This document shows, one piece after another, positions 38,228-54,048 of a stretch of 64,000 nt of DNA (position 1 is its first letter; every line of letters begins with the position of its first letter). The position numbers were made by a program, and so were the translations under genes. The DNA comes from an uncultured Eubacterium sp. (GTDB lineage: Bacteria > Bacillota > Clostridia > Peptostreptococcales > Anaerovoracaceae). The notes beneath the pieces were generated by a model, which did not search any database, was not told the origin of the DNA, and was given only the letters and a program-made list of their open reading frames with translations. The stretch spans positions 62,001 through 126,000 of the forward strand of contig CAMNSS010000007.1 of assembly GCA_946555345.1 (NCBI GenBank). The letters are read 5' to 3'.

Positions 38228-39349
38228 ATGGACATCAAAACATTTAAAGTAGAACGCTGGATGAATGATTATGAGGAAGAATGCGCCTATAATCTGGCGG
38301 AAACCTGCATCGATTCGCTTACCGTGAGGGAGCTTTTGGAATTATCCGGCGAGGATGTGGAGGAGTATATGGTAAAACTGGCGGATACGAGGCTGACCTA
38401 CGGCCATATCTACGGTTCGCCTGAACTGCTAAGAGGCCTTGCCGGCCTTTATAAAACGATCGCCCCGGCACAGATCATCCCGACCCATGGCGCAATCGGC
38501 GCAAACCATCTGGCGATCAGCACCGTGATCAGTGCCGGCGACAATATGATTTCCGTGCTGCCGACGTACCAGCAGCATTATTCCATCCCGGAATCCATCG
38601 GCGCGGAGGTGCGGATCATCAGCCTGAACCTGGATAATCATTTTTTGCCTGACATGGAGCAGCTAAAAAGCCTCGTCGACGGGAACACGAAGATGATCAC
38701 CATTAACAACCCCAACAATCCTTCCGGCTCGCTGATTCCCGCCGGGCAGATGGAGGAGATTGTCGAAATCGCCGAAAGCGTGGGCGCGTACGTCCTCTGC
38801 GACGAAGTGTACCGGGGGATTTCCGAAGATGGCGGGTATATGCCTTCCATCGTGGACCTTTACGACAAAGGGATTTCGGTGTGCAGCATGTCTAAGACCT
38901 TTTCCATGGCGGGCGTCAGGCTTGGCTGGCTCGCGACCCGTGATGAAGGCCTGCTGGAACGCTGCAAGGAAAGGAGGGATTACGATACCATCAGCTGTGG
39001 CGTGATCGATGACAAGCTGGCCGCACTGGCGCTGAAACACAAGGAGAAGATATTGGAACGAAATCGCAAGATTTTGCTGGACAACAGGAAAATCCTCGAT
39101 GATTGGGTCAATGCGACCCCGGAGGTCTATTACCAGAAGCCGGAGGCAGGCACGACAGCCCTCGTGTATTACAAAAAGGATATGCCGTCCCATGAATTGT
39201 GCGTCGAGCTGCTAAAGCGCAAGGGTGTACTATTCACGCCGGGGGAATGTTTTGAGATGGAAGGGGCGGTCCGCATCGGGTATGCCTTTGACTCGAAGCT
39301 TTTAAAGCAAGGGCTGGATCTGTTCACTGAATTTTTGCGGGAGGAATGA
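38228..39349 (+). CDS. Class I/II PLP aminotransferase
   Basis: Fold-type I aminotransferase, 373 residues. Motifs: TYGHIYGSPELL, NNPNNPSGSLIP (about 160-170), CDEVYRG, and the PLP lysine (Lys223) in SMSKTFSMAGVRLGW. Substrate unknown. Start ATG 38228 with AAGGAGG; an upstream in-frame ATG at 38159 lies in the regulatory region and has no ribosome site. First gene of an operon with the ornithine cyclodeaminase-family gene, which it overlaps by ATGA or 1-3 nt depending on the start. Controlled probably by the divergent PucR. Confidence 0.88.
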   Translation: MDIKTFKVERWMNDYEEECAYNLAETCIDSLTVRELLELSGEDVEEYMVKLADTRLTYGHIYGSPELLRGLAGLYKTIAPAQIIPTHGAIGANHLAISTVISAGDNMISVLPTYQQHYSIPESIGAEVRIISLNLDNHFLPDMEQLKSLVDGNTKMITINNPNNPSGSLIPAGQMEEIVEIAESVGAYVLCDEVYRGISEDGGYMPSIVDLYDKGISVCSMSKTFSMAGVRLGWLATRDEGLLERCKERRDYDTISCGVIDDKLAALALKHKEKILERNRKILLDNRKILDDWVNATPEVYYQKPEAGTTALVYYKKDMPSHELCVELLKRKGVLFTPGECFEMEGAVRIGYAFDSKLLKQGLDLFTEFLREE

Positions 39350-39351
39350 CA

Positions 39352-40365
39352 ATGAAGATGAGGGTTTTAAGCACGGAAGATGTGAAGAAGGTCGTGGAAA
39401 TGAAGCCGGTGATCGAAGCGGTGGAACAGGTCTATATGCAAAAGGGCAGAAACGAGGCGGTGGTTTGGCCTACGGTCTTCTATGAATTTGAGCCGGGCGT
39501 TTCGGACATGGATATCAAGTCGGGCTACCTAAAAGATGCCGGGCTGTTCGGGCATAAGACGGTGTCCCTGTTTACGCAGAATCAGGAAAAAGGACTGCCG
39601 GAGCTGCTTGGTTGCATCATGGTGTTCGATGCAGCAACGGGCGCGCCGCTCGGGCTTTTAGACGGGTCGTATATCACGGGCGTGCGCACGGGAGCAGCCG
39701 GTGCAATCGGTGCAAAGTACCTGGCGAGAAAGGATTCCAAAACGCTCTTTATCCTAGGCGCAGGGCATCAGGCAACATTCCAGGTTGCCGCCATGCTGAC
39801 GGAATTTCCGCAGCTGGAAACGATCTATGTGGCAGACCCGATCGATCATGAAAACGCCGTATCCTTCGTAAATTCCCTGCCGCAGCGGTTAAAGGACGGA
39901 TTCGGCATCGATGTATCGGGCATTTCCGTGCGGGCGGCGGAAGACCTTGCGGAAACCGTCTCGGAAAGCGATATCATCATTACGGTGACGCCATCGAAAG
40001 AGCCGCGCATCAAAAAGGAATGGGTCAGCCCGGGCACGCATTTTTCCTGCATCGGCGCAGACATGGCGGGAAAGGAAGAGATTGACCCTGCGCTGTTTGC
40101 GGGGGCGGTGGTCTTCGTGGATGATAAGTTTCACTGCATCGAGGCAGGGGAGCTTGAAATTCCGCTGAAAAAAGATATGATCAAGGAAGAGGATATCGCC
40201 GGTGAAATCGGCAGCCTTATTCTGGGCGATGCAAAGGGGCGCATTTCCGATGAGCAGATCACCATCTATGACGCTACGGGCATGGCGCTCCTCGATATCG
40301 CGGCGGCGAAAGCGGCGTTGGAGCTGGCAGAGGAAAAAGGGATTGGGCAAGTGGTGGAGATTTAA
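39352..40365 (+). CDS. Ornithine cyclodeaminase/mu-crystallin family enzyme
   Basis: NAD(P)-binding enzyme, 337 residues, with Rossmann motif LGAGHQA near residue 138 and family blocks LLGCIMVFDAATGAPLGLLDG and TGVRTGAAGAIGAKYLAR. The family includes ornithine cyclodeaminase, alanine dehydrogenase, EutC and iminosuccinate reductase; the exact reaction cannot be read. Start: ATG 39352 lies 6 nt after GGGAGGA; ATG 39346 is too close. It is in an operon with an aminotransferase and the remnant dehydratase, a gene mix like that of EutB/EutC or beta-hydroxyaspartate pathways. Confidence 0.85.
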   Translation: MKMRVLSTEDVKKVVEMKPVIEAVEQVYMQKGRNEAVVWPTVFYEFEPGVSDMDIKSGYLKDAGLFGHKTVSLFTQNQEKGLPELLGCIMVFDAATGAPLGLLDGSYITGVRTGAAGAIGAKYLARKDSKTLFILGAGHQATFQVAAMLTEFPQLETIYVADPIDHENAVSFVNSLPQRLKDGFGIDVSGISVRAAEDLAETVSESDIIITVTPSKEPRIKKEWVSPGTHFSCIGADMAGKEEIDPALFAGAVVFVDDKFHCIEAGELEIPLKKDMIKEEDIAGEIGSLILGDAKGRISDEQITIYDATGMALLDIAAAKAALELAEEKGIGQVVEI

Positions 40366-40386
40366 TGGAAGCAACAGAGGAGGCAG

Positions 40387-40518
40387 ATGTGGCTGGTTTA
40401 TGATGAAGTAAACGCGGCATATGGACGTATCAAGCCGTACATACCCGACGCGCCGCTGGTGCAGGCGGAAGCGTGTCCTGCGATGATAAAGTCTTACGAA
40501 GACAAGGAGACTGTACGA
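40387..40518 (+). pseudogene. Internally deleted threonine-dehydratase remnant
   Basis: These 44 codons have their own start and an AGGAGG site. Residues 1-24 match the N-terminus of a dehydratase (DEVNAAYGRIKPYIPDAPL). Residues 25-43 match a central part: VQAEACPAMIKSYEDKE here against VQTDACPAMVRSIEDKK at residues 205-221 of the intact paralogue at 32942. About 180 codons, including the PLP lysine, have been lost between. The frame continues into the following aminotransferase, which has its own ribosome site, so read-through may give a short fusion, but this piece cannot be functional. Confidence 0.75.
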
Positions 40519-41694
40519 ATGAAACATAGATTTATTGCGAAAAGATATTGGAAGGATAAAAGCACCGCGATGGGGCAATCCGATGTGTTGGCCCGAAGCT
40601 TTGATGACTGCATTGATTTAAGCCTGGGCGACCCGGATCTGACGACCCACCAATTGGTTATTGAGAAGTCATACGAAGACGCGAAAGCAGGGCATACGAA
40701 ATATACGGATTTCAGAGGAGACCCGGAGTTGCGGAAAGAGGTGTGCAGATTTTACAAGGAAGAGTACCATATGGATATCGTAGACAGTGAAGTGTTTATC
40801 TGCGCTTCGGGATGTCTGGGAATGTATCTGGCGCTGGAAGCAATTCTGGACGATGCTGACGAAGTTATTTTACAGGCGCCCTTTTTTACGCCTTACCCGC
40901 AGCAGGTTGAACTTGCAAGGGGCATTCCGATTGAACTTCCAACCTATGAAGAAGAAAATTTTCAAATCGATATCAGTAGGCTTGAGGAGTTAATCACAGA
41001 GAGGACAAAGGCATTGGTCATTAACTCACCGTCTAATCCAACGGGAAATTGTTTGACTGTGGATACGATGAAGCGCATTGCAGAGATCGCGGAAAAATAT
41101 GACTTGCTCGTTATAGCCGACGATATTTATACTGCTTTTAGTTATGAACATGATTTTATTCCGTTCGCATCCTTGCCGGGCATGAAGGAACGTACAATTA
41201 TTATAAATTCCTTCTCTAAGAATTTTACGATGACAGGGTGGCGTGTAGGAAATATCATTGCCCCTGATTATATCATCAAAATCATTCAGCAAATTAACGA
41301 GAATGTAGTATTTACCGCTCCGTCCATCTCGCAACGAGCGGCGCTTTATGCGCTTCGGTACAGAAAAGAGGTGCAGCTTGAAATGGTACGGGAGTATAGA
41401 GAGCGGATGTTCTATGCGGCGAAAAGAATTAACGACATTCCCAATATGCACGTAATTTATCCGCCAAAAGGCAGTATTTACCTGTTCGTCAACATTCAGG
41501 CGACAGGGCTTTCCTCCGTGGAGGCAGCAGATGCAATTCTAAAGGAGGCTCATGTTTTGACACTTCCGGGCAATGCTTTCGGCCGATGTGGAGAAGGGTT
41601 TGTGAGGATGGCGTGTACGGTCGGGAAGGAGATACTCAAAGATGCCTTTGACAGAATTGAGAAAATGAAGATTTTCAGATTGGTGGAAAAATGA
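40519..41694 (+). CDS. Class I/II PLP aminotransferase 2
   Basis: Fold-type I aminotransferase, 391 residues. Motifs: LSLGDPDLTTH, FRGDPELRKEV, NSPSNPTGN, ADDIYTAF, and the PLP lysine (Lys234) in SFSKNFTMTGWRVG. Related to AspC-like enzymes of group I-beta/gamma; substrate unknown. Start ATG 40519 with AAGGAG 9 nt upstream; the longer in-frame start at 40387 belongs to the dehydratase remnant. Lower GC than the preceding two genes, in line with the carrier/dehydratase block, suggesting a different origin (inference). Confidence 0.88.
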   Translation: MKHRFIAKRYWKDKSTAMGQSDVLARSFDDCIDLSLGDPDLTTHQLVIEKSYEDAKAGHTKYTDFRGDPELRKEVCRFYKEEYHMDIVDSEVFICASGCLGMYLALEAILDDADEVILQAPFFTPYPQQVELARGIPIELPTYEEENFQIDISRLEELITERTKALVINSPSNPTGNCLTVDTMKRIAEIAEKYDLLVIADDIYTAFSYEHDFIPFASLPGMKERTIIINSFSKNFTMTGWRVGNIIAPDYIIKIIQQINENVVFTAPSISQRAALYALRYRKEVQLEMVREYRERMFYAAKRINDIPNMHVIYPPKGSIYLFVNIQATGLSSVEAADAILKEAHVLTLPGNAFGRCGEGFVRMACTVGKEILKDAFDRIEKMKIFRLVEK

Positions 41695-41792
41695 AAATGA
41701 CTTTGCATGAACGGCGGGGTTATAGCCTGGGCGGGGCAACAGATGCGATCAGCTTTTCTTTTATGAGTACCCGTCTCATGCTCTTTATGTAG
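41691..41792 (+). pseudogene. Stub of a transporter gene (GPH/MFS-like N-terminus)
   Basis: Begins with ATG overlapping the aminotransferase stop (ATGA), and encodes 33 residues up to TAG 41790. The sequence LHERRGYSLGGATDAISF, followed by hydrophobic residues, looks like the N-terminus of a sugar/carboxylate symporter of the GPH or MFS type. The rest of the gene is missing. The coupled start suggests it was once the next operon gene. Confidence 0.45.
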
Positions 41793-42253
41793 AACATGAC
41801 GATGGTGATGGCCAATTGTGTCAGCCCGAAAGCAAAGAAACGAAAGTATAACGATCAAATAAAATTTTCATCAGCAGTCAGTATAACGAAAAATCTCTTG
41901 GCTGGAGGGGTATGCCCTCCAGCTGTAAAAATTCTTTTAACGAGACACATATCCCTGTTCGCCCAAACAGAAATTACCCCCCGTAAAAAAAGTACACAAA
42001 AAAACACCTGTAGATTTCATGTATAGAATAGCATGAAAACTGAATTTATGAAGCCATGGCAGCAACGTCTGTCTATTTTGTTGTGCGGATTATTAGATGC
42101 ATGATGAGAGCATAATAGCATTCTGCCTGTAAAACAGGATATAGATAAGATGTCATTGGTTCTCAAAAACCTTCACTTCATGACATTGGCGTGAGACGCG
42201 GGGATGCTTTTTTTAAGTTGTTAATGTTTTTCAGATAGTTTCTTTACATAATA
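41793..42253 (+). other. Intergenic region with a hairpin, no supported gene
   Basis: Holds a perfect stem GCTGGAGGG/CCCTCCAGC (41901-41909 with 41915-41923) without a good T tract, possibly a terminator for the aminotransferase operon. The rest is AT-rich. A 76-codon frame at 41796-42026 crosses the hairpin and looks non-coding. Confidence 0.5.
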
Positions 42254-42262
42254 TGCTATAAT
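42254..42262 (+). promoter_or_regulatory. Extended -10 promoter before the zinc-ribbon/rhuM genes
   Basis: TGCTATAAT: consensus -10 with TGn extension. No convincing -35 is present, as is usual for such promoters. Confidence 0.5.
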
Positions 42263-42276
42263 TAAGTTGCATAATG

Positions 42277-42521
42277 ATGAAAGAACGGAACATGATTTTG
42301 ATGTGTAAGAGCATCAAAAATTGTATCCTTTAAGCCAATGCGACAAGTGTGGAAGTCGTGTGTTTGCTTTCTCAACTGAAATCGGGTAAACATCTAGAGA
42401 TAGAAAAGGAAGATATTATTTCAAAGGCAGGCGTTATGGCGGAAAATATGCAAATAAAGCAGATATGCTCAGTGTGGTTTTGCTTGAAAAGACAGTAAAG
42501 CAGCGGAGGGAAGCGATATGA
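42277..42521 (+). pseudogene. Broken small zinc-ribbon gene upstream of rhuM
   Basis: Reading the frame that ends at TGA 42519-42521 gives SQCDKCGSRVFAFSTEIG, an in-frame TAA (42387-42389), then SRDRKGRYYFKGRRYGG and on to VKQRREAI. The stop overlaps the rhuM ATG (ATGA), as in real operons. TAA is one base from AAA (Lys). The N-terminal part continues in another frame from ATG 42277, so a frameshift near 42325-42335 is also likely. CxxC suggests a zinc-binding finger. I do not recognise the family. Confidence 0.5.
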
Positions 42522-43522
42522 ACGGGAAAGATATATCGAGCCAAAAATCAGATATGATTATCTACATAACAGAAGATGGGCTAACCAAAATCGAAACAAC
42601 TTTTGATGGTGATACAGTATGGCTGTCAAAGGCACAGATGGCAGAATTATTCCAAAGAGATAAATCGACGATTTCAAGGCATATAAAAAATGTTTTTTCC
42701 GAGGGAGAACTAGTGAGAGAATCAGTTGTTGCAAATTTTGCAACAACTGCGGCAGACGGAAAAACCTATCAGGTTGACTATTATAATCTGGATGTTATTA
42801 TCTCTGTAGGGTATCGAGTGAAATCTAAGCGTGGTACACAGTTTAGAATTTGGGCAACCAATATATTGAAAGAGTATATGCGAAAAGGCTTTGCTCTGGA
42901 TGATGAACGATTGAAAAATCTGGGTGGCGGCGGTTATTTTCAGGAACTGTTGGAACGTATCCGTGACATTCGTGCTTCTGAAAAGGTCTTTTACAGGCAA
43001 GTTTTAGAAATTTATACTACAAGCATTGACTATGATCCAAAAGCAGAAATCTCCATCCAGTTTTTTAAAAAAGTTCAGAACAAAATTCATTATGCGATTC
43101 ATGGACAAACAGCGGCAGAGGTGATTTATAACAGAGCTGATGCAGAAAAAGAATTTATGGGGCTTGCCGCATTTATGGGGAAGCAGCCAACATTGAAAGA
43201 AGCAATCGTTGCGAAAAACTATCTGGATGAAAAAGAGCTTCGGGCAATGGGGCAGCTAGTATCTGGGTATTTGGATTTTGCAGAGCGTCAGGCGGAATGC
43301 GGGCAGGTGATGACCATGCAGGATTAGGCAGAGCATCTTGATCGGATTTTGACGATGAGCGGTGAGCAATTACTGATTGGAAACGGGAGCATCAGCCACA
43401 AGCAAGCGGTCGATAAGGCAACAGATGAATATAAAAAATATAAAGCGAATACATTAAGTGATGTTGAAGAAGATTATTTGAATGCCATTAAAATGTTGGG
43501 GAAAAAGGCAGATATGAAATAA
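42518..43522 (+). pseudogene. RhuM-family protein gene with in-frame amber stop
   Basis: The first 269 codons give a RhuM (virulence_RhuM) type protein: wHTH-like N-terminus (VWLSKAQMAELFQRDKSTISRHIKNVF), VDYYNLDVIISVGYRVKSKRGTQFRIWAT and IHYAIHGQTAAEVIYNRADAEKEFMGLAAF. TAG at 43325-43327 stops it, but the same frame continues with 64 residues of normal RhuM ending (AEHLDRILTMSGEQLL...) to TAA 43522. Family members have Trp at this place, so TGG to TAG is the simplest cause. The shortened protein may or may not work; its role (known only as associated with restriction or pathogenicity loci) is unclear. Confidence 0.75.
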
Positions 43523-43560
43523 AGAAAACCAGGGAACACAAATCAGAAAGGGTAAGCAAT

Positions 43561-45168
43561 ATGGCAAAAAAGAAAACCGCTGAAAAGACACTCAATATCG
43601 ATAACATTTTATTTAATTGCAGGGATATCCTGCGTGCGGCGCGCAATTCAGGCTCATTCTTTGAAAAGAGGGATATGATGCTCACGCTTGTTTTCTTGCG
43701 CTTTATCGGCGAGAAGTACGAAGATGGCGTCGAAAAACTTCGCCAGACGTTGATCGAGCAGGGTCTTGACCTAGAAGATGAAAATATCAGGGCGGCATTC
43801 TTCGATGATGCTACTTTTACAGACGGGACATACAACTTGCCATATGAAGCGAGGTGGCAGACCATTATCAATACGCCTGCGCCGGGGCTTAATGTTGCGC
43901 TTGATACGGCGCTTCACAGCATTGCAGCAGGGTCGGATGATTTGAAGGGATGTTTTGTTGAAGGCACGTTTACAACCAGGAATCTTGCGCCCAATGACAT
44001 CAAGAAGCTTGTGGACGAAGTAAACAAAATCAGCCATAAGGCATTCGGTGAAGAAAAAGACCTGATCGGCCGTGTTTACGAATACTTCCTCAAAGAATTT
44101 GCGGTGAACGCAACAAAGGAAGAAGGCGAATTTTACACGCCGCACGACGTGGTTTCGCTGATCGCATCCATGATCGAGCCTTATGATGGCACGTTATATG
44201 ATCCTTGCTGCGGTTCGGGTGGTATGTTTGTTCAGAGCGCTGCTCTTGTAAAAGCCAGACAGGGGGATATCAACCGCATCAACATTTATGGGCAGGAAAA
44301 GGATGCCGCCACCTACCGCCTTGCAAAAATGAACCTTGCGCTTCGCAGTCTCAGCCACCACCTGGGGGAGACGAATGATTCATCCTTTACGCACGATTTG
44401 CACAAGGGGCTGTACTTCAATTATATTATGGCAAATCCGCCCTTTAACCTGAAAGGCTGGTATGACGCTAACCTGAAAAATGATGTTCGCTGGGCTGATT
44501 ATCAAACACCGCCGGAGGGCAACGCAAACTATGCCTGGATTTTGCATATGCTTTCCCATTTAAAACCTGCCGATGGCGTTGCGGGATTCCTTCTCGCAAA
44601 CGGCGCATTGAACGATAGTGATACGTTGGAAATCCGCAAAAAACTGATTCAGAATGACAAGGTGGAAGCCATTATCGTTTTGCCGAGGGAATTGTTCATC
44701 ACGACTGATATCAGCGTTACCCTTTGGATTTTGAACCAGAATAAAAAAGGCGGAAACTACCATGGCAGAAATCTCCGCAATCGTGAGCATGAAATACTCT
44801 TTGTGGATTTGCGCCAGTGGAGGAATCATCCTGTCAAGGGTGAAAATAAAAAGAAAGTGCGTTTGGCTGCAGAACAGATTGAACGAGCCGCAGAGATATA
44901 CCATGCATGGCAAAGGGAAGGTACCGATGGGACAAACTATGAAACACCGGAACTTTACCGCAGTGTAGGGATTCTTGAAATCGAAAGCAAGGGCTGGACG
45001 CTTACGCCGAGCAAATACATTGAATTTATCGACCATGATTTAGAGATTGACTACGAAAAGGAAATGGCACGCATTCAAGCGGAAATGAAAGAAGTGATGA
45101 AACAGGAAAAGAAATCCCAGCAGATGCTGGAAGACGCATTTAGGGGGATTGGCTATGGGATTGACTAA
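43561..45168 (+). CDS. hsdM: Type I restriction-modification system methyltransferase subunit
   Basis: N6-adenine methyltransferase subunit, 535 residues. N-terminal HsdM helical domain, then SAM-binding DPCCGSGGMF (214-223) and catalytic NPPF (292-295). With HsdS it methylates the host site; with HsdR it forms the restriction complex. Start ATG with AGAAAGGG. It overlaps hsdS by 14 nt. No damage is visible. Confidence 0.95.
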   Translation: MAKKKTAEKTLNIDNILFNCRDILRAARNSGSFFEKRDMMLTLVFLRFIGEKYEDGVEKLRQTLIEQGLDLEDENIRAAFFDDATFTDGTYNLPYEARWQTIINTPAPGLNVALDTALHSIAAGSDDLKGCFVEGTFTTRNLAPNDIKKLVDEVNKISHKAFGEEKDLIGRVYEYFLKEFAVNATKEEGEFYTPHDVVSLIASMIEPYDGTLYDPCCGSGGMFVQSAALVKARQGDINRINIYGQEKDAATYRLAKMNLALRSLSHHLGETNDSSFTHDLHKGLYFNYIMANPPFNLKGWYDANLKNDVRWADYQTPPEGNANYAWILHMLSHLKPADGVAGFLLANGALNDSDTLEIRKKLIQNDKVEAIIVLPRELFITTDISVTLWILNQNKKGGNYHGRNLRNREHEILFVDLRQWRNHPVKGENKKKVRLAAEQIERAAEIYHAWQREGTDGTNYETPELYRSVGILEIESKGWTLTPSKYIEFIDHDLEIDYEKEMARIQAEMKEVMKQEKKSQQMLEDAFRGIGYGID

Positions 45169-46291
45169 ATATAAACTTGGGGAATTGATTGAGCAATGCG
45201 ATGACAGAAATGAAGATTTACGGTATGGCATGGGTGATGTAAAAGGAATCTCCATCCAGAAGATTTTTATTGAAACGAAAGCAAATATGAAAGGTGTGTC
45301 CCTAAGCCCTTATAAACTGGTAAAACCGGACGATTTTGCCTGTGTTACCGTGACCTCCCGAAACGGGGAAAAGATTACATTAGCGCATAATACGACTGAA
45401 AATACTTATATTGTTTCTTCATCGTATGTGGTGTTCCGGGTCAAGCAAACCGATACGCTTTTATCTGACTACCTGTTCATGTACTTCAACCGGCCGGAAT
45501 TTGACCGATACGCGCGGTTTCATTCATGGGGTTCGGCACGGGAAACCTTTCGCTGGGAAGATCTGTGTGACATGGATATTGTCCTTCCGCCGCTTCCAAT
45601 CCAGCAAAAGTACGTTGATGTATACAATGCCATGATTGAAAACCAGGAAAGCTACGAACGTGGACTTGCGGATTTGAAGCTCTCATTTGAAGCATTAATC
45701 GATGAATACAAGCATAAAGCTTGCAAGAGAACAGTTGGCGCAATTCTGGAGGAAATAGATTGCCGTAATACAGATGGGACAATCACTGATGTGCAAGGAA
45801 TCAATATAACGAAGCAGTTCATGCCGTCTGTTGCAAATACATACAATGTCAATCTATCTAAATATAAAGTAGTAAAAAAGGGTCAGTTTGCTTTCTCAGG
45901 AATGCAGACTGGCAGGGATGAATGCATCCGAATCGCATTATTTAATGAGAATGAACCGATTGTTATCTCTCCAGCATACACAGTTTTAGGGATGAAAGAT
46001 CATACAGTTCTTGCTGAATACATCATGATGTGGTTTTCCCGAAAAGAAGTAGACAGGCTTGGTTGGTTTATGAGCGATGCAAGCATCAGGACAAATTTGG
46101 ACATGGATCGATTTTATGAAATAGAAATTCCTGTCCCCGGCTTAAAGGTTCAAGAATCAATTATAGGAATTTATGATGCGTACAATGCACGCAAGTCCAT
46201 TAACGAAAAACTCAAAGCACAGATCAAAGACATCTGCCCCATTCTCATCAAAGGCTCTCTTGAAGAGGCGAGAAATACAGAGGAGGCATAA
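45155..46291 (+). CDS. hsdS: Type I restriction-modification system specificity subunit
   Basis: DNA-recognition subunit, 378 residues, with two target-recognition domains (about 1-150 and 190-345), each followed by a helical spacer (LPPLPIQQKYVDVYNAMIENQESYE and VPGLKVQESIIGIYDAYNARKSI). Recognition sequence cannot be read. Start is ATG 45155, 8 nt after AGGGGG; a TTG 6 nt earlier is possible. Lies between hsdM and hsdR as usual. Confidence 0.92.
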   Translation: MGLTKYKLGELIEQCDDRNEDLRYGMGDVKGISIQKIFIETKANMKGVSLSPYKLVKPDDFACVTVTSRNGEKITLAHNTTENTYIVSSSYVVFRVKQTDTLLSDYLFMYFNRPEFDRYARFHSWGSARETFRWEDLCDMDIVLPPLPIQQKYVDVYNAMIENQESYERGLADLKLSFEALIDEYKHKACKRTVGAILEEIDCRNTDGTITDVQGINITKQFMPSVANTYNVNLSKYKVVKKGQFAFSGMQTGRDECIRIALFNENEPIVISPAYTVLGMKDHTVLAEYIMMWFSRKEVDRLGWFMSDASIRTNLDMDRFYEIEIPVPGLKVQESIIGIYDAYNARKSINEKLKAQIKDICPILIKGSLEEARNTEEA

Positions 46292-46294
46292 TCC

Positions 46295-49200
46295 ATGGCA
46301 AAGCTCAAAAATTACAACGGCCGTTACTGTGAATCGGAATATGAATCTGCCTTTATCGCCTTTTTAGAGGCGGAGGGCTGGACATATTCTTACGGTGGCA
46401 GCATCTCCCGCGCCAGCAAGAGGGATGTGCTGATTGCTGGTGATTTTAAGAACTTCATAACCGTTGCCGCCCCGGACTTAACAGCAGATGAAGTGATGCA
46501 AATTTTTGATCACGTCCGTCTTGCAGGCGCTGAAAGTGATTTTGCTGCTTTGCATAAAGTGTATGGCTGGATGGCCTGCGGCGTCCAGTTTATTCCGCAG
46601 GATGGATTGGCAAAGATAATCCCGCTCATTGATTTTGAAAACCCGCATAAGAACATATTCCGCGTGGTAAACCAGCTTGCGGTAGAATATACAAATAACG
46701 GCAAAAAGGAAAATCGCAGGCCGGATGTATTGTTGTATGTCAATGGGATGCCGTTATGTGTCATTGAACTAAAAAATCCTGCCGATGCAAATGCGACCAT
46801 TCACGATGCGTGGAAGCAAATCAATATCCGTTATTGGAGAGACATTCCGCACCTGTTGCATTATTGCCCTTTGGCGTGCATTTCCGATGGCGTGAAGACA
46901 AGGCTTGGGACTGTCCGCACGCCTTATGAGCATTTTTACGCTTGGCGCAGGGTGAATGACGGGGATAAAATATCCACGATGCCTTTTGAGGAAACGGAAA
47001 CGATGATCAAGGGCGTGTACAGTCCCGCTCGGTTTTTGGAAATCTTCAGGGATTACATTTATTTTCAAGACAGCATTTATGATAGTTCCGAGGTCGAAAT
47101 TGTGTGCCGTTATCCGCAGTTCTTTGCTGCAAGGCTGTTAAAGCAAAGCATCATCAATTCCGTTATCGAAAAGAGCGGCAAAGGCGGTACCTATTTTGGC
47201 GCGACAGGATGCGGGAAAACATACGCGATGGCTTTTCTTGCCCGCCAGCTTGCGCTTCGCTGCACCGATATCCCGGAAATCGGTTCACCGACCATTATCT
47301 TGATTGTCGATCGTGATGAATTGCAAAAGCAAGGCGCAAAGCTATTCACAAGGAGCAAGGAATTTTTAAACCTCGGTGAGGTTTCCGTCGTAAAAAACAG
47401 GGCAGAGCTGCGACAGGAACTTGGTACAAGGCAAAGCGGCGGTTTCTATATTTGCACCATCCAGAAGTTTTGTGACCGGGAGGATGATAAAATAGGCCTG
47501 ATCAACGGTCGGCGGAATATTATTTGTTTCTCCGATGAAGCCCACAGAACCCAGCTCGAACACTCGAAAAAGATCCGCTTCAGCAAGGATACTGATGAAA
47601 ACATGAGAGCCATGGTCTCAAAGCCATATGCCAAGGTATTAAAAGAAGCCTTCCCGCAGGCGACTTTCGTGGGTTTTACGGGAACGCCGATTGCAGAAAC
47701 CTATCAGACCTTTGGTGAGGAAATTGACCGCTATACCATGGATCAAGCGGTCGCTGACGGATTAACGGTATCAATCAAATATCACCCTCGCATTGCAAAG
47801 GTTTTATTGGATAAAGAAAAAGCAAAGCAAATTGAAGGTTACTATAAAAAATGCGCCGATGACGGTGCGGCATATGAGGATATCGAAGCAAGCAAAAAAG
47901 CGATGAGTTCCATGGAGGTGATTTTGGGCGAACCTTCCAGACTTGCGCGTTTAGCGGCGGATATCCATGACCACTACGTTTCTTCCTGTGCGGCAGATCC
48001 GGACAGAATCCAGAAAGCCATGGTAACTTGTTCAAATAGAAAAATCGCCTACGCATTATTGCAAAAATTTAAAGATAAATACCCGGAATGGTTTGAAGAA
48101 AAGAAATCCCCTGACGGTGTGTCTGTAACCGAAGCGGAGTTAAAGGAACTGAAACCGATGCCTTTCATGGCGATGGTATCGAGCGTCGGAAGCAATGACG
48201 AAGTTGATATGTACAATTACCTCGGCGGCGTGAAAAATGATAAACGCAGTGAAGACCTGGACGCCGCTTTCAAACAGGAAAAATCAAATTTCCATATCGT
48301 TATTGTTGTCGATATGTGGATCACCGGATTTGATGTGCCATCCCTTACATATTTATACAATGATAAACCGCTCAAAAAGCATTTGCTGATCCAGACCATC
48401 AGCCGGGTAAACCGAAAATATCCCGGCAAAGAATTTGGCATGGTGGTCGATTATATCGGCATTCGTGACAATATGCGGGAAGCGATGAAGGTTTATGGCG
48501 GCGATCTGTCTGTCGCCCCAACCGCTGATGATGTCGAACAGGCCGCATCCATGTTTCGGGAAGAATTGGAAATCCTGAAAACACTGTTTGCCGATTATGA
48601 TTTGACGCTGTTTTTGAACCCCGAATGCGATCCCGTGCAGCGTTACAGGCTTCTTGCAAAGGCGGCAGAATACGTATTTGCATCGACACTAGTATTGCAG
48701 ACGGAAGGAGATCGGGGGATTCAAAAGGTTTCCTTCAGGACTTACTTTCTAAAGACGGTGAAACGAATGCGGGCTGCTTTTGATCTCTGCCAGCCTTCCG
48801 GCAGCCTGCGTGAAGAAGAATCCGCCCTTGCACAGTGTTTTATGGCGATCGCGGGCTTTGTGCGCAAAATGAGCGGAACGAGCGAAGTGGACGCCGACAC
48901 CATGAACCGTGCAGTATCGAAAATGGTCGAAGAAGCGCTCAAGTACAACCAGGTAGAAAGCGTCCTGGAAAGCGGCGAGGAAGAAGACCTCTTTTCTCCT
49001 GAATACTTCGAGAAATTATCAGACGTTCAAATGCCCGCAACGAAGCTGGAACTTCTTGTAAAAATGCTCCGTAAGCAGATTCAGGAGTATGGAAAGGTCA
49101 ACCAGCTTGCTGCAAAGTCATTCCAGGAAATGCTGGAAAAAACGATTGCAGAATACCATGAAAGGCGCAAAGCTCTTCTTGCCGAAGAAGCTGGGCAGGC

Positions 49201-49681
49201 GCAGGAACAAGCCTCTGAGGATATTATTAAGACTGCTACCGGCCAGGCTCTGGCAATTTTGCATCAGATGAAGGAAAGCAGGGAAAGTTTTCGTAAGCTC
49301 GGGCTAACCTTTGAGGAAAAAGCATTCTATGATATTTTGATGGCTTTATGCAGTCAATACGGTTTTGAATACGGAACAGACCAAGAGTCTGGCGGTGTTG
49401 TTGTCAACGGCAAGTGCAAAGCCTTGGCGAAAAAAGTAAAGGAAATCATCGATGCGAAATCTTCCTTTGCCGATTGGCTGAATAACCAGAATGTGCGCAA
49501 CCAGTTAAAACTTGAGATCAAGATTTGCCTGGTGAAGAACGGCTATCCGCCGCAGTACAGCCCCGAGGTGTTTCGCAAAGTGATGGAGCAGGTGGAAAAT
49601 TTTGAGGAGCATTCGGATGCTGGCAGCATATTTGATGATTCAGCAAAGGGTGCGGTTTTACCAAAGGCGGGGGAATCATGA
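46295..49681 (+). CDS. hsdR: Type I restriction-modification system endonuclease subunit
   Basis: Restriction/translocation subunit, 1128 residues. N-terminal PD-(D/E)xK nuclease with Asp144, Glu158 and Lys160 (VIELKNP). Helicase motor: Walker A GATGCGKT (302-309), DEAH (414-417), SAT-like GFTGTPI, and motif VI TISRVNRKYPGKE. The C-terminal about 250 residues are helical, for complex assembly. Intact reading frame. It follows hsdS by 3 nt, so one operon hsdMSR. Confidence 0.95.
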   Translation: MAKLKNYNGRYCESEYESAFIAFLEAEGWTYSYGGSISRASKRDVLIAGDFKNFITVAAPDLTADEVMQIFDHVRLAGAESDFAALHKVYGWMACGVQFIPQDGLAKIIPLIDFENPHKNIFRVVNQLAVEYTNNGKKENRRPDVLLYVNGMPLCVIELKNPADANATIHDAWKQINIRYWRDIPHLLHYCPLACISDGVKTRLGTVRTPYEHFYAWRRVNDGDKISTMPFEETETMIKGVYSPARFLEIFRDYIYFQDSIYDSSEVEIVCRYPQFFAARLLKQSIINSVIEKSGKGGTYFGATGCGKTYAMAFLARQLALRCTDIPEIGSPTIILIVDRDELQKQGAKLFTRSKEFLNLGEVSVVKNRAELRQELGTRQSGGFYICTIQKFCDREDDKIGLINGRRNIICFSDEAHRTQLEHSKKIRFSKDTDENMRAMVSKPYAKVLKEAFPQATFVGFTGTPIAETYQTFGEEIDRYTMDQAVADGLTVSIKYHPRIAKVLLDKEKAKQIEGYYKKCADDGAAYEDIEASKKAMSSMEVILGEPSRLARLAADIHDHYVSSCAADPDRIQKAMVTCSNRKIAYALLQKFKDKYPEWFEEKKSPDGVSVTEAELKELKPMPFMAMVSSVGSNDEVDMYNYLGGVKNDKRSEDLDAAFKQEKSNFHIVIVVDMWITGFDVPSLTYLYNDKPLKKHLLIQTISRVNRKYPGKEFGMVVDYIGIRDNMREAMKVYGGDLSVAPTADDVEQAASMFREELEILKTLFADYDLTLFLNPECDPVQRYRLLAKAAEYVFASTLVLQTEGDRGIQKVSFRTYFLKTVKRMRAAFDLCQPSGSLREEESALAQCFMAIAGFVRKMSGTSEVDADTMNRAVSKMVEEALKYNQVESVLESGEEEDLFSPEYFEKLSDVQMPATKLELLVKMLRKQIQEYGKVNQLAAKSFQEMLEKTIAEYHERRKALLAEEAGQAQEQASEDIIKTATGQALAILHQMKESRESFRKLGLTFEEKAFYDILMALCSQYGFEYGTDQESGGVVVNGKCKALAKKVKEIIDAKSSFADWLNNQNVRNQLKLEIKICLVKNGYPPQYSPEVFRKVMEQVENFEEHSDAGSIFDDSAKGAVLPKAGES

Positions 49682-49896
49682 TTGATCAATAAAAGTTAGA
49701 TGGAGAGGCAATTTACCGAATCTTTTGATGAATGGAAAAGCATTTTGAAAAGCATCTGCATAAAGATAAAGGGGTGGAAAATGCAAAGCAAAATGTTATA
49801 ATAATTGTGTAATAAGCGCCTGGGAAAAGGCGCGGCGATTGCTCATCAGCGTGCAAACGCAAATCAAACGAAAAAGTATACATAAGGAGGTTTTTT

Positions 49897-50100
49897 ATGT
49901 TATCAAAAAATCTTGCCCATTTTGACCGGCTGGCATGCGTAGCGTGCGGCACCTGTGTCAAGGAATGCCCCCGCAGTGCAGTCAAGGTTTACAAAGGCTG
50001 TTATGCTGTTGTTGAGGCAGAACGCTGTGTGGGGTGCGGGAAATGTGCGAAGGCCTGCCCGGCAGGCTGTATTGTGGTTGAGGAAAGAAAGGAACGGTAA
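49897..50100 (+). CDS. Small 2[4Fe-4S] ferredoxin
   Basis: A 67-residue dicluster ferredoxin with two CxxCxxCxxxCP motifs (CVACGTCVKECP and CVGCGKCAKACP). Acts as a soluble low-potential electron carrier. AAGGAGG lies upstream, and the stop overlaps the following gene. The pair probably forms one redox unit. The 215 nt before it (49682-49896) hold no supported gene; a TATAAT at 49797-49802 may be its promoter. Confidence 0.88.
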   Translation: MLSKNLAHFDRLACVACGTCVKECPRSAVKVYKGCYAVVEAERCVGCGKCAKACPAGCIVVEERKER

Positions 50101-50687
50101 TGGCAAACAATAAAAAGCGCTGGTATGATTATCTGTGGATCTGGTCTATCATTTATTTTTCGCTGGGATTTTTTAATATTTTATTTGCATGGCTGGGCAT
50201 GGTTGATTTTCTTTTGCCGCTGTTAATTGCGCTGATCGGCGGGAATAAGTGGTTTTGCAACAATCTCTGTGGAAGGGGACAGCTGTTTTCCCTGCTTGGC
50301 GGAAAGCTCGGATTCTCTTTGAAAAGACCGACGCCAAAGTGGATGTCATCGAAATGGTTCCGGTATGGATTTTTGGTTTTCTTTTTGGCGATGTTCGGAA
50401 ACATGGTATTTCAAACTTATTTGATTTTTGCCGGGGCGGATTCCCTGCGAGAAGTGATTAAATTGTTTTGGACGATCAAAGTGCCTTGGGGATGGACTTA
50501 TACGGCTGGCCTGGCGCCTGGCTGGGTGGCGCAGTTCAGCTTCGGTTTTTACAGCCTGATGCTGACTTCGTTGCTGTTGGGCTTGCTCGCCATGGTTTTC
50601 TTCAGGCCTCGTTCCTGGTGTGCATTTTGTCCGATGGGAACGATGACGCAGGGTATTTGCAAGCTGAAAAACAAAGTCCGTAAATAA
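50100..50687 (+). CDS. 4Fe-4S membrane protein (NapH/CcoG-like, short)
   Basis: Membrane protein of 195 residues with about four hydrophobic helices and two cysteine pairs at helix ends (CNNLCGRG near 53-60 and WCAFCPMG near 177-184). This is the 4Fe-4S binding pattern of the NapH/NosR polyferredoxin family without its own ferredoxin domain; the preceding gene supplies one in trans. Electron donor and acceptor are not known. Overlaps the ferredoxin stop. Confidence 0.78.
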   Translation: MANNKKRWYDYLWIWSIIYFSLGFFNILFAWLGMVDFLLPLLIALIGGNKWFCNNLCGRGQLFSLLGGKLGFSLKRPTPKWMSSKWFRYGFLVFFLAMFGNMVFQTYLIFAGADSLREVIKLFWTIKVPWGWTYTAGLAPGWVAQFSFGFYSLMLTSLLLGLLAMVFFRPRSWCAFCPMGTMTQGICKLKNKVRK

Positions 50688-50758
50688 GGGGAGAAACAGC
50701 AAATGGCTTAAGATAGGATGCTCTAGGCGAAGCATATTATCTGTGGTCATGGCTATCA

Positions 50759-50787
50759 TTGAGAGAATCGAAATATTGTGATAAAAT
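50759..50787 (+). promoter_or_regulatory. SigmaA-type promoter for the 854-residue protein gene
   Basis: TTGAGA (50759-50764), 17-nt spacer, TAAAAT (50782-50787). Leader of about 145 nt. The gene is therefore probably transcribed separately from the restriction and ferredoxin genes. Confidence 0.75.
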
Positions 50788-50938
50788 AACAGTAAACTAT
50801 GATTTTTGTTAAAGGCAGGGCATATAAGCGTGGACCATAACAATTAGCGCAGGTGAATTTGTACATGATGTTTGCTTTTGTCCTGTCAGCACAAATTGAT
50901 TCATGCAAGCTTACCAATATACAACAAGAAAGGCGGCA

Positions 50939-53503
50939 ATGTCCATGGCTAAGAAATGTTCAATATGTGGGAAAAAACTGGGGTTTCTGGATGGAAAAAT
51001 AGTGATATCAGATGGCGTGGTCTGTACATCGTGCTGGGCAAGTGCTGGGTTAGATATGAGTTTTCGGGCGATGTATTCCGCATCGAACAAAACAACGAAC
51101 CAGATTCGGGATTTAATTGAGATTGAAATATTAAAGCGGGAGGCGGCGAAAGCTGGATTAAAACAGGAAATCGCTTCTGCCAATCAAGCAAAGCTAGGAG
51201 AACGGCCAAACCAGCCGACGGCAAAACAGAAAAAAGCTTCCCCGGAAAGCAAGGCAAAAAGCGTTGAAAAAGACATTACAAAACCAGTTGATATTATTTT
51301 AGCGGTAGATGCAAATAAAGGTGTGGGTTTTGCTTGTGAGGGAAAACCCGTGATAAACTTTGACGATTTGATCAATGGACGGGAAATGATTATCGGGGAT
51401 GGCTTCATTCATAATGAAAGCAATGAAGCCCTTCCTGAAATCAGGATCGTATGCGAATTTGAGCCGCCAATCATTGATGCCGGGCTTATTTATTATGAGG
51501 CTGGTACTTTTGCTGCTGGAGCAGAGGGACGATTTGAAATCGATGATCCGCCGATAAATCTTGAAGAATATGCGAAAATAAAAAGAACGAGAAATGGAAA
51601 ATTCAGGCTTACGATGTTCCTGGGAGAGCAGGAAATCCATACAGAAGAATGCGGGATGAAAATCAAACCTGCACCAGCAGAAGATATGCAAAAACTGATG
51701 AATGCCGTTATGTATGAAGAAGAAAAAAATGCATCTGGCTCGGTTAACATATTTCTCTATGCGAGGGAAACCGGCTCATACGACATTGACCTTATGAGAA
51801 ATCCGGAGTTGCTTTATTCTATGTATTCTAATGGGAAAGAGCAAATTATCGGGGATGTTTTTGTAACGAATGAGTTAAACCATGCACTGAATAATGTACA
51901 GTTCGAGGCAAGGTATGCTTCTGATATATTATCTCCTGTCGATGTGCTTTTGGGGAATGTCCCAGCAGGAGAAAATATTTCGTTTGAAGTAGATGATCCT
52001 GCGATCGATGTGGAGAAACTCGAAATGCTCACGGAAATTGAATCCTGCACAGCCACATATAGGATTTTGGTTGACGGAAGACCTGTTGCCGAATCAATCG
52101 GGAGAATTACGATATGTCCATATAATCAGTGGAATGCGGCATTGATCTTATTGCCCGCATACATGACGCCCAATCATCCGAATATTATTTCTGTGTTACA
52201 GAATGCCTCCCAATGGATGCTGGTTAATGGCATGAACCCTTCCCTTGAAGGCTATCAGAGCGATGCCCGCCGGGTGGAGGAAATGGTTAAAGCTGTGTAT
52301 CATGCCGTAAAAGAAGCAAATATTATTTATTCAAATCCTCCGGCAAGTTTCTTTGGACCGCAGCGGATCAGGCTTTGTGAAACGGTTTTTGAACAAAAAT
52401 TTGCTACATGCATGGACATGACGATTTTGTTTGCTTCCTGTTTAGAATCCTTTGGCTTGCATCCTGTCCTCATTACTGCGCCAGGACATATTTTTGCAGG
52501 CGTATGGCTGACAGCAACGGGAAGGCTGCAAGAGCCTGTGATTTCAGATGCAAAGCTGATCCAAAAACATATCAAGGAAAAAAAGCTTGTCGCGATCGAG
52601 TGTACTGCCATGAATGCTGGAAAAGATACAGGCTATGATAAGGCAAAACAAATTGCGAGCAATACGATCAAGGATATGGCGGAAAATGATATCTCGGATC
52701 ATGAATGCATTGATGTTCAGATTGTAAGGGCGATCGGGGTGAGGCCGCTTCCGATGAGAATGCACCGCCCTGCTCCGGCCGACGCTTTAACCGCAGTGGA
52801 GGGGACGCCGTTTTTTGCAGAGAAAACGGCATTGGAGACAAAAAATGCCGTGCCAAAGAAACCCGTTGCCTCAGAAGAAGCCATAAAAGAAGTATCGAAT
52901 GATGAACCAGGCATTGGAACAAAACAGACGGCAAACAGTGTGCGTACATACTATACGAAAGAAGCATATCAATCCTTTGATAAAGATTTAGCGGATATAT
53001 CGATCGACAATTTTTATGATAAGCAGAGCAAAAAGATTATAAAGAACGCTATCGTGGAAATTGTAGCGGTTGAAGGTCCAATCAGCCAGCCTTCTTTGAT
53101 TAGGGTCATCATCAACAAAACAAGCCTCGGAAGGGCAAGCAAGCAGATTACAGAGCATCTGGATAAGCTTGTTGCAGCTGCCGATGTCAAAATTACAAGA
53201 CAAAACGGCATAAGATTCTTATGGAGTCAGGGAACAGAGCCATCGCAATATACTGCATATAGGATGAAGGAACAGAGACCCCCGGATGAAATCTGCAAGT
53301 ATGAGTTAAAAAATGCAGTCTGCTATCTGATTCAGGAAAATGGTCCAATGGCAAAAGAAGAGATTGGAAAGGATATGGTTCGCTTGCTTGGATATAATCG
53401 TTCTAGCAAAAAAATTGAAGATGGCGCGGCCGCCGCAATCAAAGCCGCAAAAGAACTGAAAGCCATCAGGCAGAATGAAGAACGGAACTTTGTCCTAGCA
53501 TGA
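50939..53503 (+). CDS. Multi-domain protein: zinc ribbon, two Ig-like, transglutaminase-like, two DUF3320-like wHTH
   Basis: Unusual 854-residue protein. Order: DUF4428-like zinc ribbon (Cys7, 10, 29, 32), basic linker (70-115), two similar beta-rich domains (about 115-255 and 267-395, each with IIGD-(G/V)F-(H/T)NE), a transglutaminase-like domain (about 400-620; likely Cys491, His517, Glu554 in TCMDMT, GHIFAG and IECT), a linker, and two DUF3320-like winged-helix units (about 685-755, 780-854). The Ig-transglutaminase-DUF3320 series is known to me as the accessory part of DUF4011 helicase-nuclease proteins such as Hhe. No Walker A, helicase or nuclease motif is seen. Start ATG 50939; ATG 50945 is also possible. 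Confidence 0.75.
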   Translation: MSMAKKCSICGKKLGFLDGKIVISDGVVCTSCWASAGLDMSFRAMYSASNKTTNQIRDLIEIEILKREAAKAGLKQEIASANQAKLGERPNQPTAKQKKASPESKAKSVEKDITKPVDIILAVDANKGVGFACEGKPVINFDDLINGREMIIGDGFIHNESNEALPEIRIVCEFEPPIIDAGLIYYEAGTFAAGAEGRFEIDDPPINLEEYAKIKRTRNGKFRLTMFLGEQEIHTEECGMKIKPAPAEDMQKLMNAVMYEEEKNASGSVNIFLYARETGSYDIDLMRNPELLYSMYSNGKEQIIGDVFVTNELNHALNNVQFEARYASDILSPVDVLLGNVPAGENISFEVDDPAIDVEKLEMLTEIESCTATYRILVDGRPVAESIGRITICPYNQWNAALILLPAYMTPNHPNIISVLQNASQWMLVNGMNPSLEGYQSDARRVEEMVKAVYHAVKEANIIYSNPPASFFGPQRIRLCETVFEQKFATCMDMTILFASCLESFGLHPVLITAPGHIFAGVWLTATGRLQEPVISDAKLIQKHIKEKKLVAIECTAMNAGKDTGYDKAKQIASNTIKDMAENDISDHECIDVQIVRAIGVRPLPMRMHRPAPADALTAVEGTPFFAEKTALETKNAVPKKPVASEEAIKEVSNDEPGIGTKQTANSVRTYYTKEAYQSFDKDLADISIDNFYDKQSKKIIKNAIVEIVAVEGPISQPSLIRVIINKTSLGRASKQITEHLDKLVAAADVKITRQNGIRFLWSQGTEPSQYTAYRMKEQRPPDEICKYELKNAVCYLIQENGPMAKEEIGKDMVRLLGYNRSSKKIEDGAAAAIKAAKELKAIRQNEERNFVLA

Positions 53504-53619
53504 AGCAAGACGCAAGGGTGCGAAGGCGCATGGAAGCTAGCCTAGGATTTTGCTGCCAGCGGCAGGGGTGGCGTTTACGCTGTTGGGACTTCTTTTTTCA
53601 GCGTGGTGAGGACGGGAAA

Positions 53620-54048
53620 ATGATTTACACGGAAATGACGAAAAAGGCAATGAAATTATGTTTTGCAGCGCACAAAGACCAGACAGATAAGAGCGGCGTG
53701 CCGTATGTATTCCATCCGATCCACCTTGCGGAGCAGATGGAGAGCGAAGAGGCGGTAATCATCGCGCTTTTGCATGATGTGGTGGAAGATACGGCGTATA
53801 CGCTGGCGGATCTGGCGGAGATGGGATTTTCCCGGCGGATTACCGATGCCCTGGCATTGCTGGCCCACGACGAGTCGGTCCCGTATCTGGAATACGTTTC
53901 CCAGGTGAAGGAAAATGCGCTCGCCAGGGCGGTCAAGCTGGTGGATTTGAAACACAATAGCGACCTGTCCCGTTTGGACGAAGTGAGTGAGGAGGCGCTT
54001 TTGCGCATGAAACAGTATGAAAAGGCGATCGCGCTGCTTGCAGAATAG
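53620..54048 (+). CDS. HD-domain phosphohydrolase (RelA/SpoT-hydrolase-like)
   Basis: HD-superfamily protein, 142 residues. Metal motif in LLHDVVEDT, with PIHLAEQM before it and VKLVDLKHNSDLSR after it, the layout of SpoT/MESH1-type ppGpp hydrolases. It may hydrolyse (p)ppGpp or another nucleotide. Start ATG 53620, with GGTGAGG; a longer frame from 53500 overlaps the previous gene's end and gives 40 residues without family similarity. Confidence 0.78.
   Translation: MIYTEMTKKAMKLCFAAHKDQTDKSGVPYVFHPIHLAEQMESEEAVIIALLHDVVEDTAYTLADLAEMGFSRRITDALALLAHDESVPYLEYVSQVKENALARAVKLVDLKHNSDLSRLDEVSEEALLRMKQYEKAIALLAE

What the first reader, a model, noticed from the sequence alone, without database searches (positions are those of the whole stretch)
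50939..53503. Helicase-free relative of DUF4011/DUF3320 (Hhe-like) defence proteins beside a type I R-M system
The 854-residue protein has a DUF4428-like zinc ribbon, two Ig-like domains, a transglutaminase-like domain with Cys491/His517/Glu554 and two DUF3320-like winged helices. In Hhe-type proteins, as I recall them, these frame a DUF4011 helicase and a Vsr-like nuclease. Here both are missing, yet the gene has a good promoter, a good frame and lies in a restriction island. It may be a sensor/adaptor that uses a helicase in trans, or a new system of its own, with the zinc ribbon and doubled Ig and DUF3320 units as innovations.
Basis: partly seen in the sequence, partly recalled or inferred. 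Interest (0 to 1): 0.72.

Follow-up and report, generated by a model that had tools for sequence, protein, structure and literature searches.

The report
Helicase-free relative of ProA defence protein
A bacterium carries a small relative of a known giant anti-virus protein that has its protease-like and DNA-binding-like ends but not the helicase and nuclease in the middle, so it may be a stripped-down, protease-driven defence protein, although nothing here tests that directly.

Summary
The 854-aa ORF at 50939-53503 has a DUF4428 zinc ribbon, an internal domain repeat (called Ig-like; unverified), a transglutaminase-like domain (Cys491/His517/Glu554) and a DUF3320-type winged-helix pair, and no helicase or nuclease. 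Its closest named kin are the giant ProA proteins (NCBIfam NF058533), not Hhe: residues 302-617 match ProA 10-325 (E 3.8e-102) and the winged-helix pair matches the giants' C-terminus. The DUF4011/AAA/MTES_1575 core between them is absent. At 343 bits against a cut-off of 1500 it is not a ProA by that test. It is not a broken gene: five intact copies (62-70% identical to the window's, purifying selection, triad kept) occur in four genera of one family, with two decayed copies. None of the five carrier genomes has a DUF4011 helicase, which argues against such a helicase in trans. Three of five copies lie among defence genes (type I R-M; type III R-M; Druantia-like); two, on short contigs, show none. 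Best reading: a stand-alone, patchily inherited immune protein whose only recognisable enzyme is the protease-like domain. Function is untested and no structure model could be obtained. New variant of a known kind.

The parts
50939..53503 (+). 854-aa protein P0001, helicase-free ProA-like protein (start may be the second Met at 50945)
50954..51115 (+). DUF4428 zinc ribbon, residues 6-59; C7, C10, C29, C32 invariant in the 5 aligned proteins
51722..52129 (+). second unit of the internal repeat, about residues 262-397; aligns with the region before the TG domain of giants
52130..52774 (+). transglutaminase-like domain, residues 398-612, with C491, H517, E554
52775..52966 (+). variable linker, residues 613-676, where giants carry DUF4011, AAA helicase and MTES_1575 nuclease
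52967..53266 (+). winged helix 1 (DUF3320), about residues 677-776
53267..53500 (+). winged helix 2, about residues 777-854
43561..49681 (+). neighbouring type I restriction-modification genes (M 43561-45168, S 45149-46291, R 46295-49681); context, not shown to be functionally coupled
42518..43327 (+). RhuM-family gene upstream of the R-M genes (context)

Best explanation
A horizontally moved, single-gene immunity protein, related to ProA giants but without (probably having lost) their helicase-nuclease core. Shown by sequence: domain order, conservation of the Cys-His-Glu triad, purifying selection, intact copies in four genera, absence of DUF4011 helicases from the same genomes, defence-gene context at three of five loci. 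Inferred: the winged-helix pair (and perhaps the zinc ribbon and the repeated N-terminal units) senses an invader's nucleic acid or protein and releases the transglutaminase-like domain, which acts as the effector by cleaving or otherwise modifying a host or phage protein. In the giants this domain would be one of several arms; here it is the only recognisable enzyme.
For: ProA match 302-617 E 3.8e-102 and PDC-S37 C-terminal match E 2e-16. Four of four giants scanned carry DUF4011, AAA_11/12 and MTES_1575; with the short-family profile, both shared ends were found in 10 of 11 giants (weakly in L069) and the TG end alone in L068, whose frame stops soon after the nuclease. Five intact relatives. 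dN/dS 0.08-0.27 in the six domains and 0.28-0.32 in the two linkers for P0002/G555, a pair not saturated at synonymous sites. Triad kept in 5 of 5 short proteins and 21 of 25 giants; the 4 without the Cys (L019, L022, L024, L069) still have 1,873-1,918-aa frames, though their helicase domains were not scanned. DUF4011 absent from 5 of 5 carrier genomes; MTES_1575 absent from the window's genome. Defence neighbours at 3 of 5 loci. GC3 of 0.415 against 0.61-0.66 in the four genes downstream. Patchy: 5 of 349 family genomes, with decayed copies in G532 and G024.
Against: No functional data and no structure. The TG assignment is below Pfam's cut-off for P0001 and no solved structure matches credibly. 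The five short proteins are close relatives, so their triad is not five independent observations. Two of five loci show no defence genes, on short contigs. L004 and L005 share the upstream flank but only L004 has the type III genes between, so the gene is not tied to that R-M system. Loss of the core is not proven: the first tree, with all 30 rows, put the short clade beside the fast-evolving Cys-less giants (support 0.90), and only without those rows did it move beside L054/L068 (UFBoot 68). Upstream genes have intermediate GC3 (hsdM 0.526, hsdR 0.518, aminotransferase 0.498). TG-like proteins of seemingly other kinds exist, e.g. a lipoprotein-like one in L026 (my reading).
Confidence: 0.45

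Rival explanations
1. Sensor/adaptor that recruits a partner enzyme (a helicase or the neighbouring R-M complex) in trans.
For: Neighbouring R-M genes in the window and in L004; winged helices and a zinc ribbon suit binding roles.
Against: No DUF4011 helicase in 5 of 5 carrier genomes, no MTES_1575 in the window's genome (not searched in the other four). The neighbours differ at each locus (type I, type III, Druantia-like), and L005 has the same upstream flank as L004 without the type III genes. The triad is kept. Partners of other families were not excluded.
Confidence: 0.2
2. Regulator, decoy or immunity-like derivative of a giant, which binds the giant's trigger or partners and dampens them, without enzymatic action of its own.
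For: Shares both ends with giants; with fast-evolving rows left out, both shared parts place it beside giant L054 of the same family (UFBoot 68 with L054+L068; 88 with L054), though the 30-row tree does not.
Against: No carrier genome shows a giant: one match each to the short-family profile and no DUF4011. Triad kept.
Confidence: 0.1
3. Not a defence protein: a housekeeping or stress-related TG-like peptidase that happens to lie in variable regions.
For: Two of five loci without visible defence genes; a TG-like protein with a lipoprotein-type N-terminus exists (L026, my reading); two ferredoxin-type genes lie between it and the R-M genes.
Against: Sparse (5 of 349) and decaying distribution, base composition unlike the genes downstream, three different defence neighbourhoods, nearest named family is anti-phage.
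Confidence: 0.2
4. Degenerate remnant of a giant whose core was deleted by chance or by assembly error.
For: The core of giants would lie exactly at the variable linker.
Against: The same layout in five genome assemblies from four genera, low dN/dS in every domain, a zinc ribbon and an extra N-terminal unit not found in giants at E 1e-3.
Confidence: 0.05

Closest known systems
ProA anti-phage protein (NCBIfam NF058533); PADLOC candidate PDC-S37
   Same: N-terminal unit plus TG-like domain (ProA 10-325) and C-terminal winged-helix pair
   Different: No DUF4011, AAA_11/12 or MTES_1575; 343 bits against cut-off 1500; adds DUF4428 and a second copy of the N-terminal unit
Hhe (NCBIfam NF042953, PADLOC Hhe)
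   Same: Linked to it only through the giants, whose best Hhe matches lie in the helicase-nuclease part
   Different: P0001 lacks that part and matched no Hhe model
HEPN-transglutaminase-SF1 helicase-Vsr-2 wHTH giants of Anantharaman et al. 2013 (PMC3710099; section 10 read in full, other passages)
   Same: TG-like domain and two winged helices overlapping DUF3320; the authors suggest the wHTHs recognise invading DNA and the TG domain may cleave proteins
   Different: No HEPN, helicase or Vsr domain here
SNIPE homologues with an N-terminal DUF4428 (PMC13190303; figure-legend passages only)
   Same: DUF4428 as the N-terminal unit of a defence protein
   Different: A different effector (a nuclease, by the paper's title)

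Membership tests
ProA (NF058533) | Whole-protein score over the curated cut-off of 1500 bits | tested here: not met
   342.9 bits, profile 10-325 of 1903 for the best stretch
ProA (NF058533) | DUF4011 + AAA helicase + MTES_1575 core | tested here: not met
   absent in P0001, present in 4 of 4 giants scanned
ProA (NF058533) | N-terminal unit and TG region with Cys-His-Glu | tested here: met
ProA (NF058533) | C-terminal DUF3320 winged-helix pair | tested here: met
ProA (NF058533) | Anti-phage activity | not testable with these tools
   needs phage challenge
Hhe (NF042953) | Match to the Hhe model | tested here: not met
   no Hhe hit up to E 1 in NCBIfam or PADLOC
Transglutaminase-like superfamily | Cys-His-acid catalytic residues | tested here: met
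   C491, H517, E554 invariant; the acid is Glu
Transglutaminase-like superfamily | Profile match over cut-off or fold match | tested here: inconclusive
   Transglut_core E 0.13 below cut-off; relatives match DUF553 weakly; no credible PDB match; no model obtained
Ig-like domain | Ig fold | tested here: inconclusive
   repeat shown; no Pfam Ig hit; structure prediction never ran (last try)
Type I R-M system | Part of the R-M operon | tested here: not met
   1,257 bases and two ferredoxin-type genes separate it from hsdR; relatives have other R-M genes or none seen. Transcription itself was not tested

The most novel reading that the evidence does not exclude
A minimal, protease-only immune protein: a ProA-type giant stripped of its helicase and nuclease, with a zinc ribbon and a doubled N-terminal unit added, in which invader sensing by the winged helices directly unleashes a transglutaminase-like cysteine enzyme. 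If so, the TG domain is an effector in its own right, and the same may hold as a hidden second arm in the giants.
Probability: 0.35. Interest if true: 0.7.

Novelty: new variant of a known kind. Interest (0 to 1): 0.5.

Why it matters
In the giants, the role of the TG-like domain is masked by the helicase and nuclease. A natural protein that keeps the triad but lacks both isolates that question: a single 2.6-kb gene and one Cys change would show whether the TG-like domain is an immune effector.

Tried and rejected
Tried without result: no relative at all in IMG/VR (by peptide patterns); in plasmids 78 records with partial matches, none covering 80% or more (20 of 78 listed); in phages 1 record, partial. 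Some plasmid hits seemed to run from TG into DUF3320 (residues 293-724); the one I checked, H1, is a giant gene of about 1,994 aa. The PDB match of the winged-helix region to ribosomal protein eL31 (E 0.001) is taken as chance. The TG-domain alignment found only two PDB entries, at E 0.6 and 1.1, taken as chance. Searching for the empty insertion site failed: in the 5 genus-mates whose 18-19 kb upstream of purC was fetched, none of the window genes tested from 39346 to 54048 was found there at E 1e-8 (purA and guaA were, in 2 of 5, in another order). The neighbouring HD gene is itself patchy: 44 of 49 genus genomes match, but apart from the window's only 4 over 119 or more of its 143 residues, most others being the HD part of a ~735-aa protein. 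Constraint trees computed were not compared and are not used. No paper that describes ProA under that name as anti-phage was seen in the listings (listings only, papers not opened for this); the name rests on NCBIfam alone. A DUF4011 helicase in trans was tested and not supported.

Full report
What is there. Window 50939-53503 encodes an 854-aa protein. Pfam finds a DUF4428 zinc ribbon (6-59) and DUF3320 (690-738), both over cut-off, and a sub-threshold Transglut_core hit. NCBIfam places residues 302-617 on positions 10-325 of the 1903-position anti-phage ProA model (E 3.8e-102; whole protein 342.9 bits, cut-off 1500). PADLOC places 654-847 on the C-terminus of PDC-S37 (E 2e-16). No helicase, ATPase or nuclease domain was found in these three scans.

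Anatomy. The TG-like domain has C491, H517 and E554 invariant across 16 aligned sequences. Weak matches of relatives to DUF553 (6 of 16) and Transglut_core (2 of 16) back the name. The two C-terminal winged-helix units resemble each other (hhalign probability 96%, E 4.5e-9).

Relation to the giants. Four giants of 1,814-2,435 aa scanned with Pfam all carry DUF4011, AAA_11, AAA_12 and MTES_1575; three of them also DUF3320, while the fourth (L068) stops soon after the nuclease. With a profile of the short family, 11 giants were examined: the TG part, mostly with the unit before it, aligns in 11 of 11 and the winged-helix part in 10 of 11, weakly in L069. Four of four giants tested pass the ProA cut-off; their Hhe scores are 717-833 against a cut-off of 2000. 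The short protein is therefore ProA-like at both ends, without the core, plus a zinc ribbon and an extra N-terminal unit. Those two were found in no giant among 34 loci at E 1e-3; one giant, L068, has a weak match to residues 68-162 (E 0.0018).

Did it arise by loss? Evidence is mixed. A FastTree of the TG part with all 30 rows long enough to use placed the short clade beside three divergent, Cys-less giants (support 0.90). After dropping 6 of the 30 rows (the 3 divergent ones, the two copies of the contig-end locus L040/L057, and the near-duplicate L073), an IQ-TREE of 24 placed it beside giants L054 and L068 (UFBoot 68), and a winged-helix tree of 15 (2 of 17 rows dropped) placed it beside L054 (UFBoot 88), L054 being from the same bacterial family. 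The trees are unrooted. I read this as probable loss of the core, not as proof.

Is it a real, maintained gene? They come from 5 of 349 genomes of the family, in four genera. The other 8 of the 13 matching genomes hold a decayed copy (G532: zinc ribbon, second unit and TG missing, and a frame change), a wHTH remnant (G024), a distant wHTH-pair protein (G610), giants (G680; G587, cut by the contig end) or hits to the first ~47 residues only (G461, G674, G731). Outside this family no full-length short relative was seen in 391 class-level and 398 phylum-level genomes, two samples that overlap. A scan of the 84,980-species collection by exact peptide patterns returned L004 and L005 only; G555 and G408 were not returned and may not be held there, so this is a lower bound. 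dN/dS is low: 0.08-0.27 in the six domains and 0.28-0.32 in the linkers for P0002/G555 (pairs with the window are saturated at synonymous sites).

Active site. One search has 35 rows from 34 distinct loci (L040 and L057 are one). Cys, His and Glu are kept in 5 of 5 short proteins and 21 of 25 giants, some seen only in part. Four giants (L019, L022, L024, L069) have lost the Cys; one of them (L019) keeps the His. The remaining 4 rows are other TG-like proteins, which keep Cys and His, with the Glu position not aligned. So ProA-length proteins can do without this Cys, while no short protein seen has lost it. The short proteins are closely related, so this is suggestive only.

Neighbourhood. In the window the gene lies 1,257 bases downstream of a type I R-M set, with two ferredoxin-type genes between. 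In L004 it follows a type III R-M pair and an OLD-like ATPase; in L050 a Druantia DruE1-like gene, a type II methyltransferase and a type I M/S-like gene lie within about 15 kb, beside a 1,134-aa gene without a PADLOC hit. L005, with a near-identical upstream flank to L004, lacks the type III genes. L049 has a serine recombinase and no defence gene that I recognised on its 8.6-kb contig. So 3 of 5 loci are among defence genes of different kinds, and 2 of 5, on short contigs, show none; no control frequency of such neighbours was computed. GC3 of the gene is 0.415, against 0.61-0.66 in the four genes downstream and 0.36-0.53 in the genes from 40387 to 50687 upstream.

Helicase in trans? DUF4011 is absent from 5 of 5 carrier genomes and present in both giant-bearing genomes, G680 and G337, put in as positive controls. 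MTES_1575 is absent from the window's genome; the other four were not searched for it.

Mechanism. Shown: domain content, conservation, distribution, absence of a DUF4011 helicase. From the literature: Anantharaman et al. 2013 (PMC3710099, section 10 read) propose for related giants that the wHTH domains recognise invading DNA and that the TG-like domain may cleave proteins. Inferred here: in the short protein the TG-like domain is the only recognisable enzyme and hence the likely effector, with the winged helices, zinc ribbon or N-terminal units as sensors. DUF4428 also occurs at the N-terminus of some SNIPE homologues that lack a membrane segment (PMC13190303, legend passages). Frames L044 and L084, found by the zinc-ribbon part of the profile, continue into what I recall as PH/SHOCT-like sequence (no library search). 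What DUF4428 binds is unknown.

Verdict. A genuine, conserved, helicase- and nuclease-free variant of ProA-type proteins. Interesting because it isolates the TG-like arm; function and fold remain to be tested.

Noticed in passing
L019, L022, L024, L069 (frames of 1,873-1,918 aa): Four divergent ProA-length proteins have lost the TG cysteine (Ser or Pro in its place), so the TG-like domain seems dispensable or structural there.
   Followed up: partly
L052:1177-2912 (-), genome G610 of the window's genus: A 240-aa protein made of a linker and a DUF3320-type winged-helix pair overlaps by 4 bases a 338-aa gene with no Pfam match: possibly a two-gene unit that uses the wHTH pair alone.
   Followed up: partly
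L081 (672-aa frame, genome G1098): Another helicase-free protein with an N-terminal Cys-rich ribbon-like stretch (my reading) and a C-terminal TG-like domain, no winged-helix match; short contig piece, no context.
   Followed up: partly
L065 and L067: Two related giants both lie directly downstream of a DNA polymerase III alpha gene, perhaps a shared insertion site.
   Followed up: no
L054 (G680, 2,435 aa): ProA-like giant with an N-terminal TerB_N domain in the same family as the window.
   Followed up: no
L073 (MT836269.1, 'Bacteriophage sp.', human faeces): An 11.4-kb record deposited as phage encodes a ProA-like giant (2,026-aa frame), closely similar in the TG part to that on a Bacteroides finegoldii plasmid (L071); it may be a misassigned mobile element.
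   Followed up: no
window 53500-54048: A frame that overlaps the stop codon by four bases leads into a small HD-domain protein (more likely start near 53620); patchy in the genus and with core-like GC3, so probably unrelated.
   Followed up: partly
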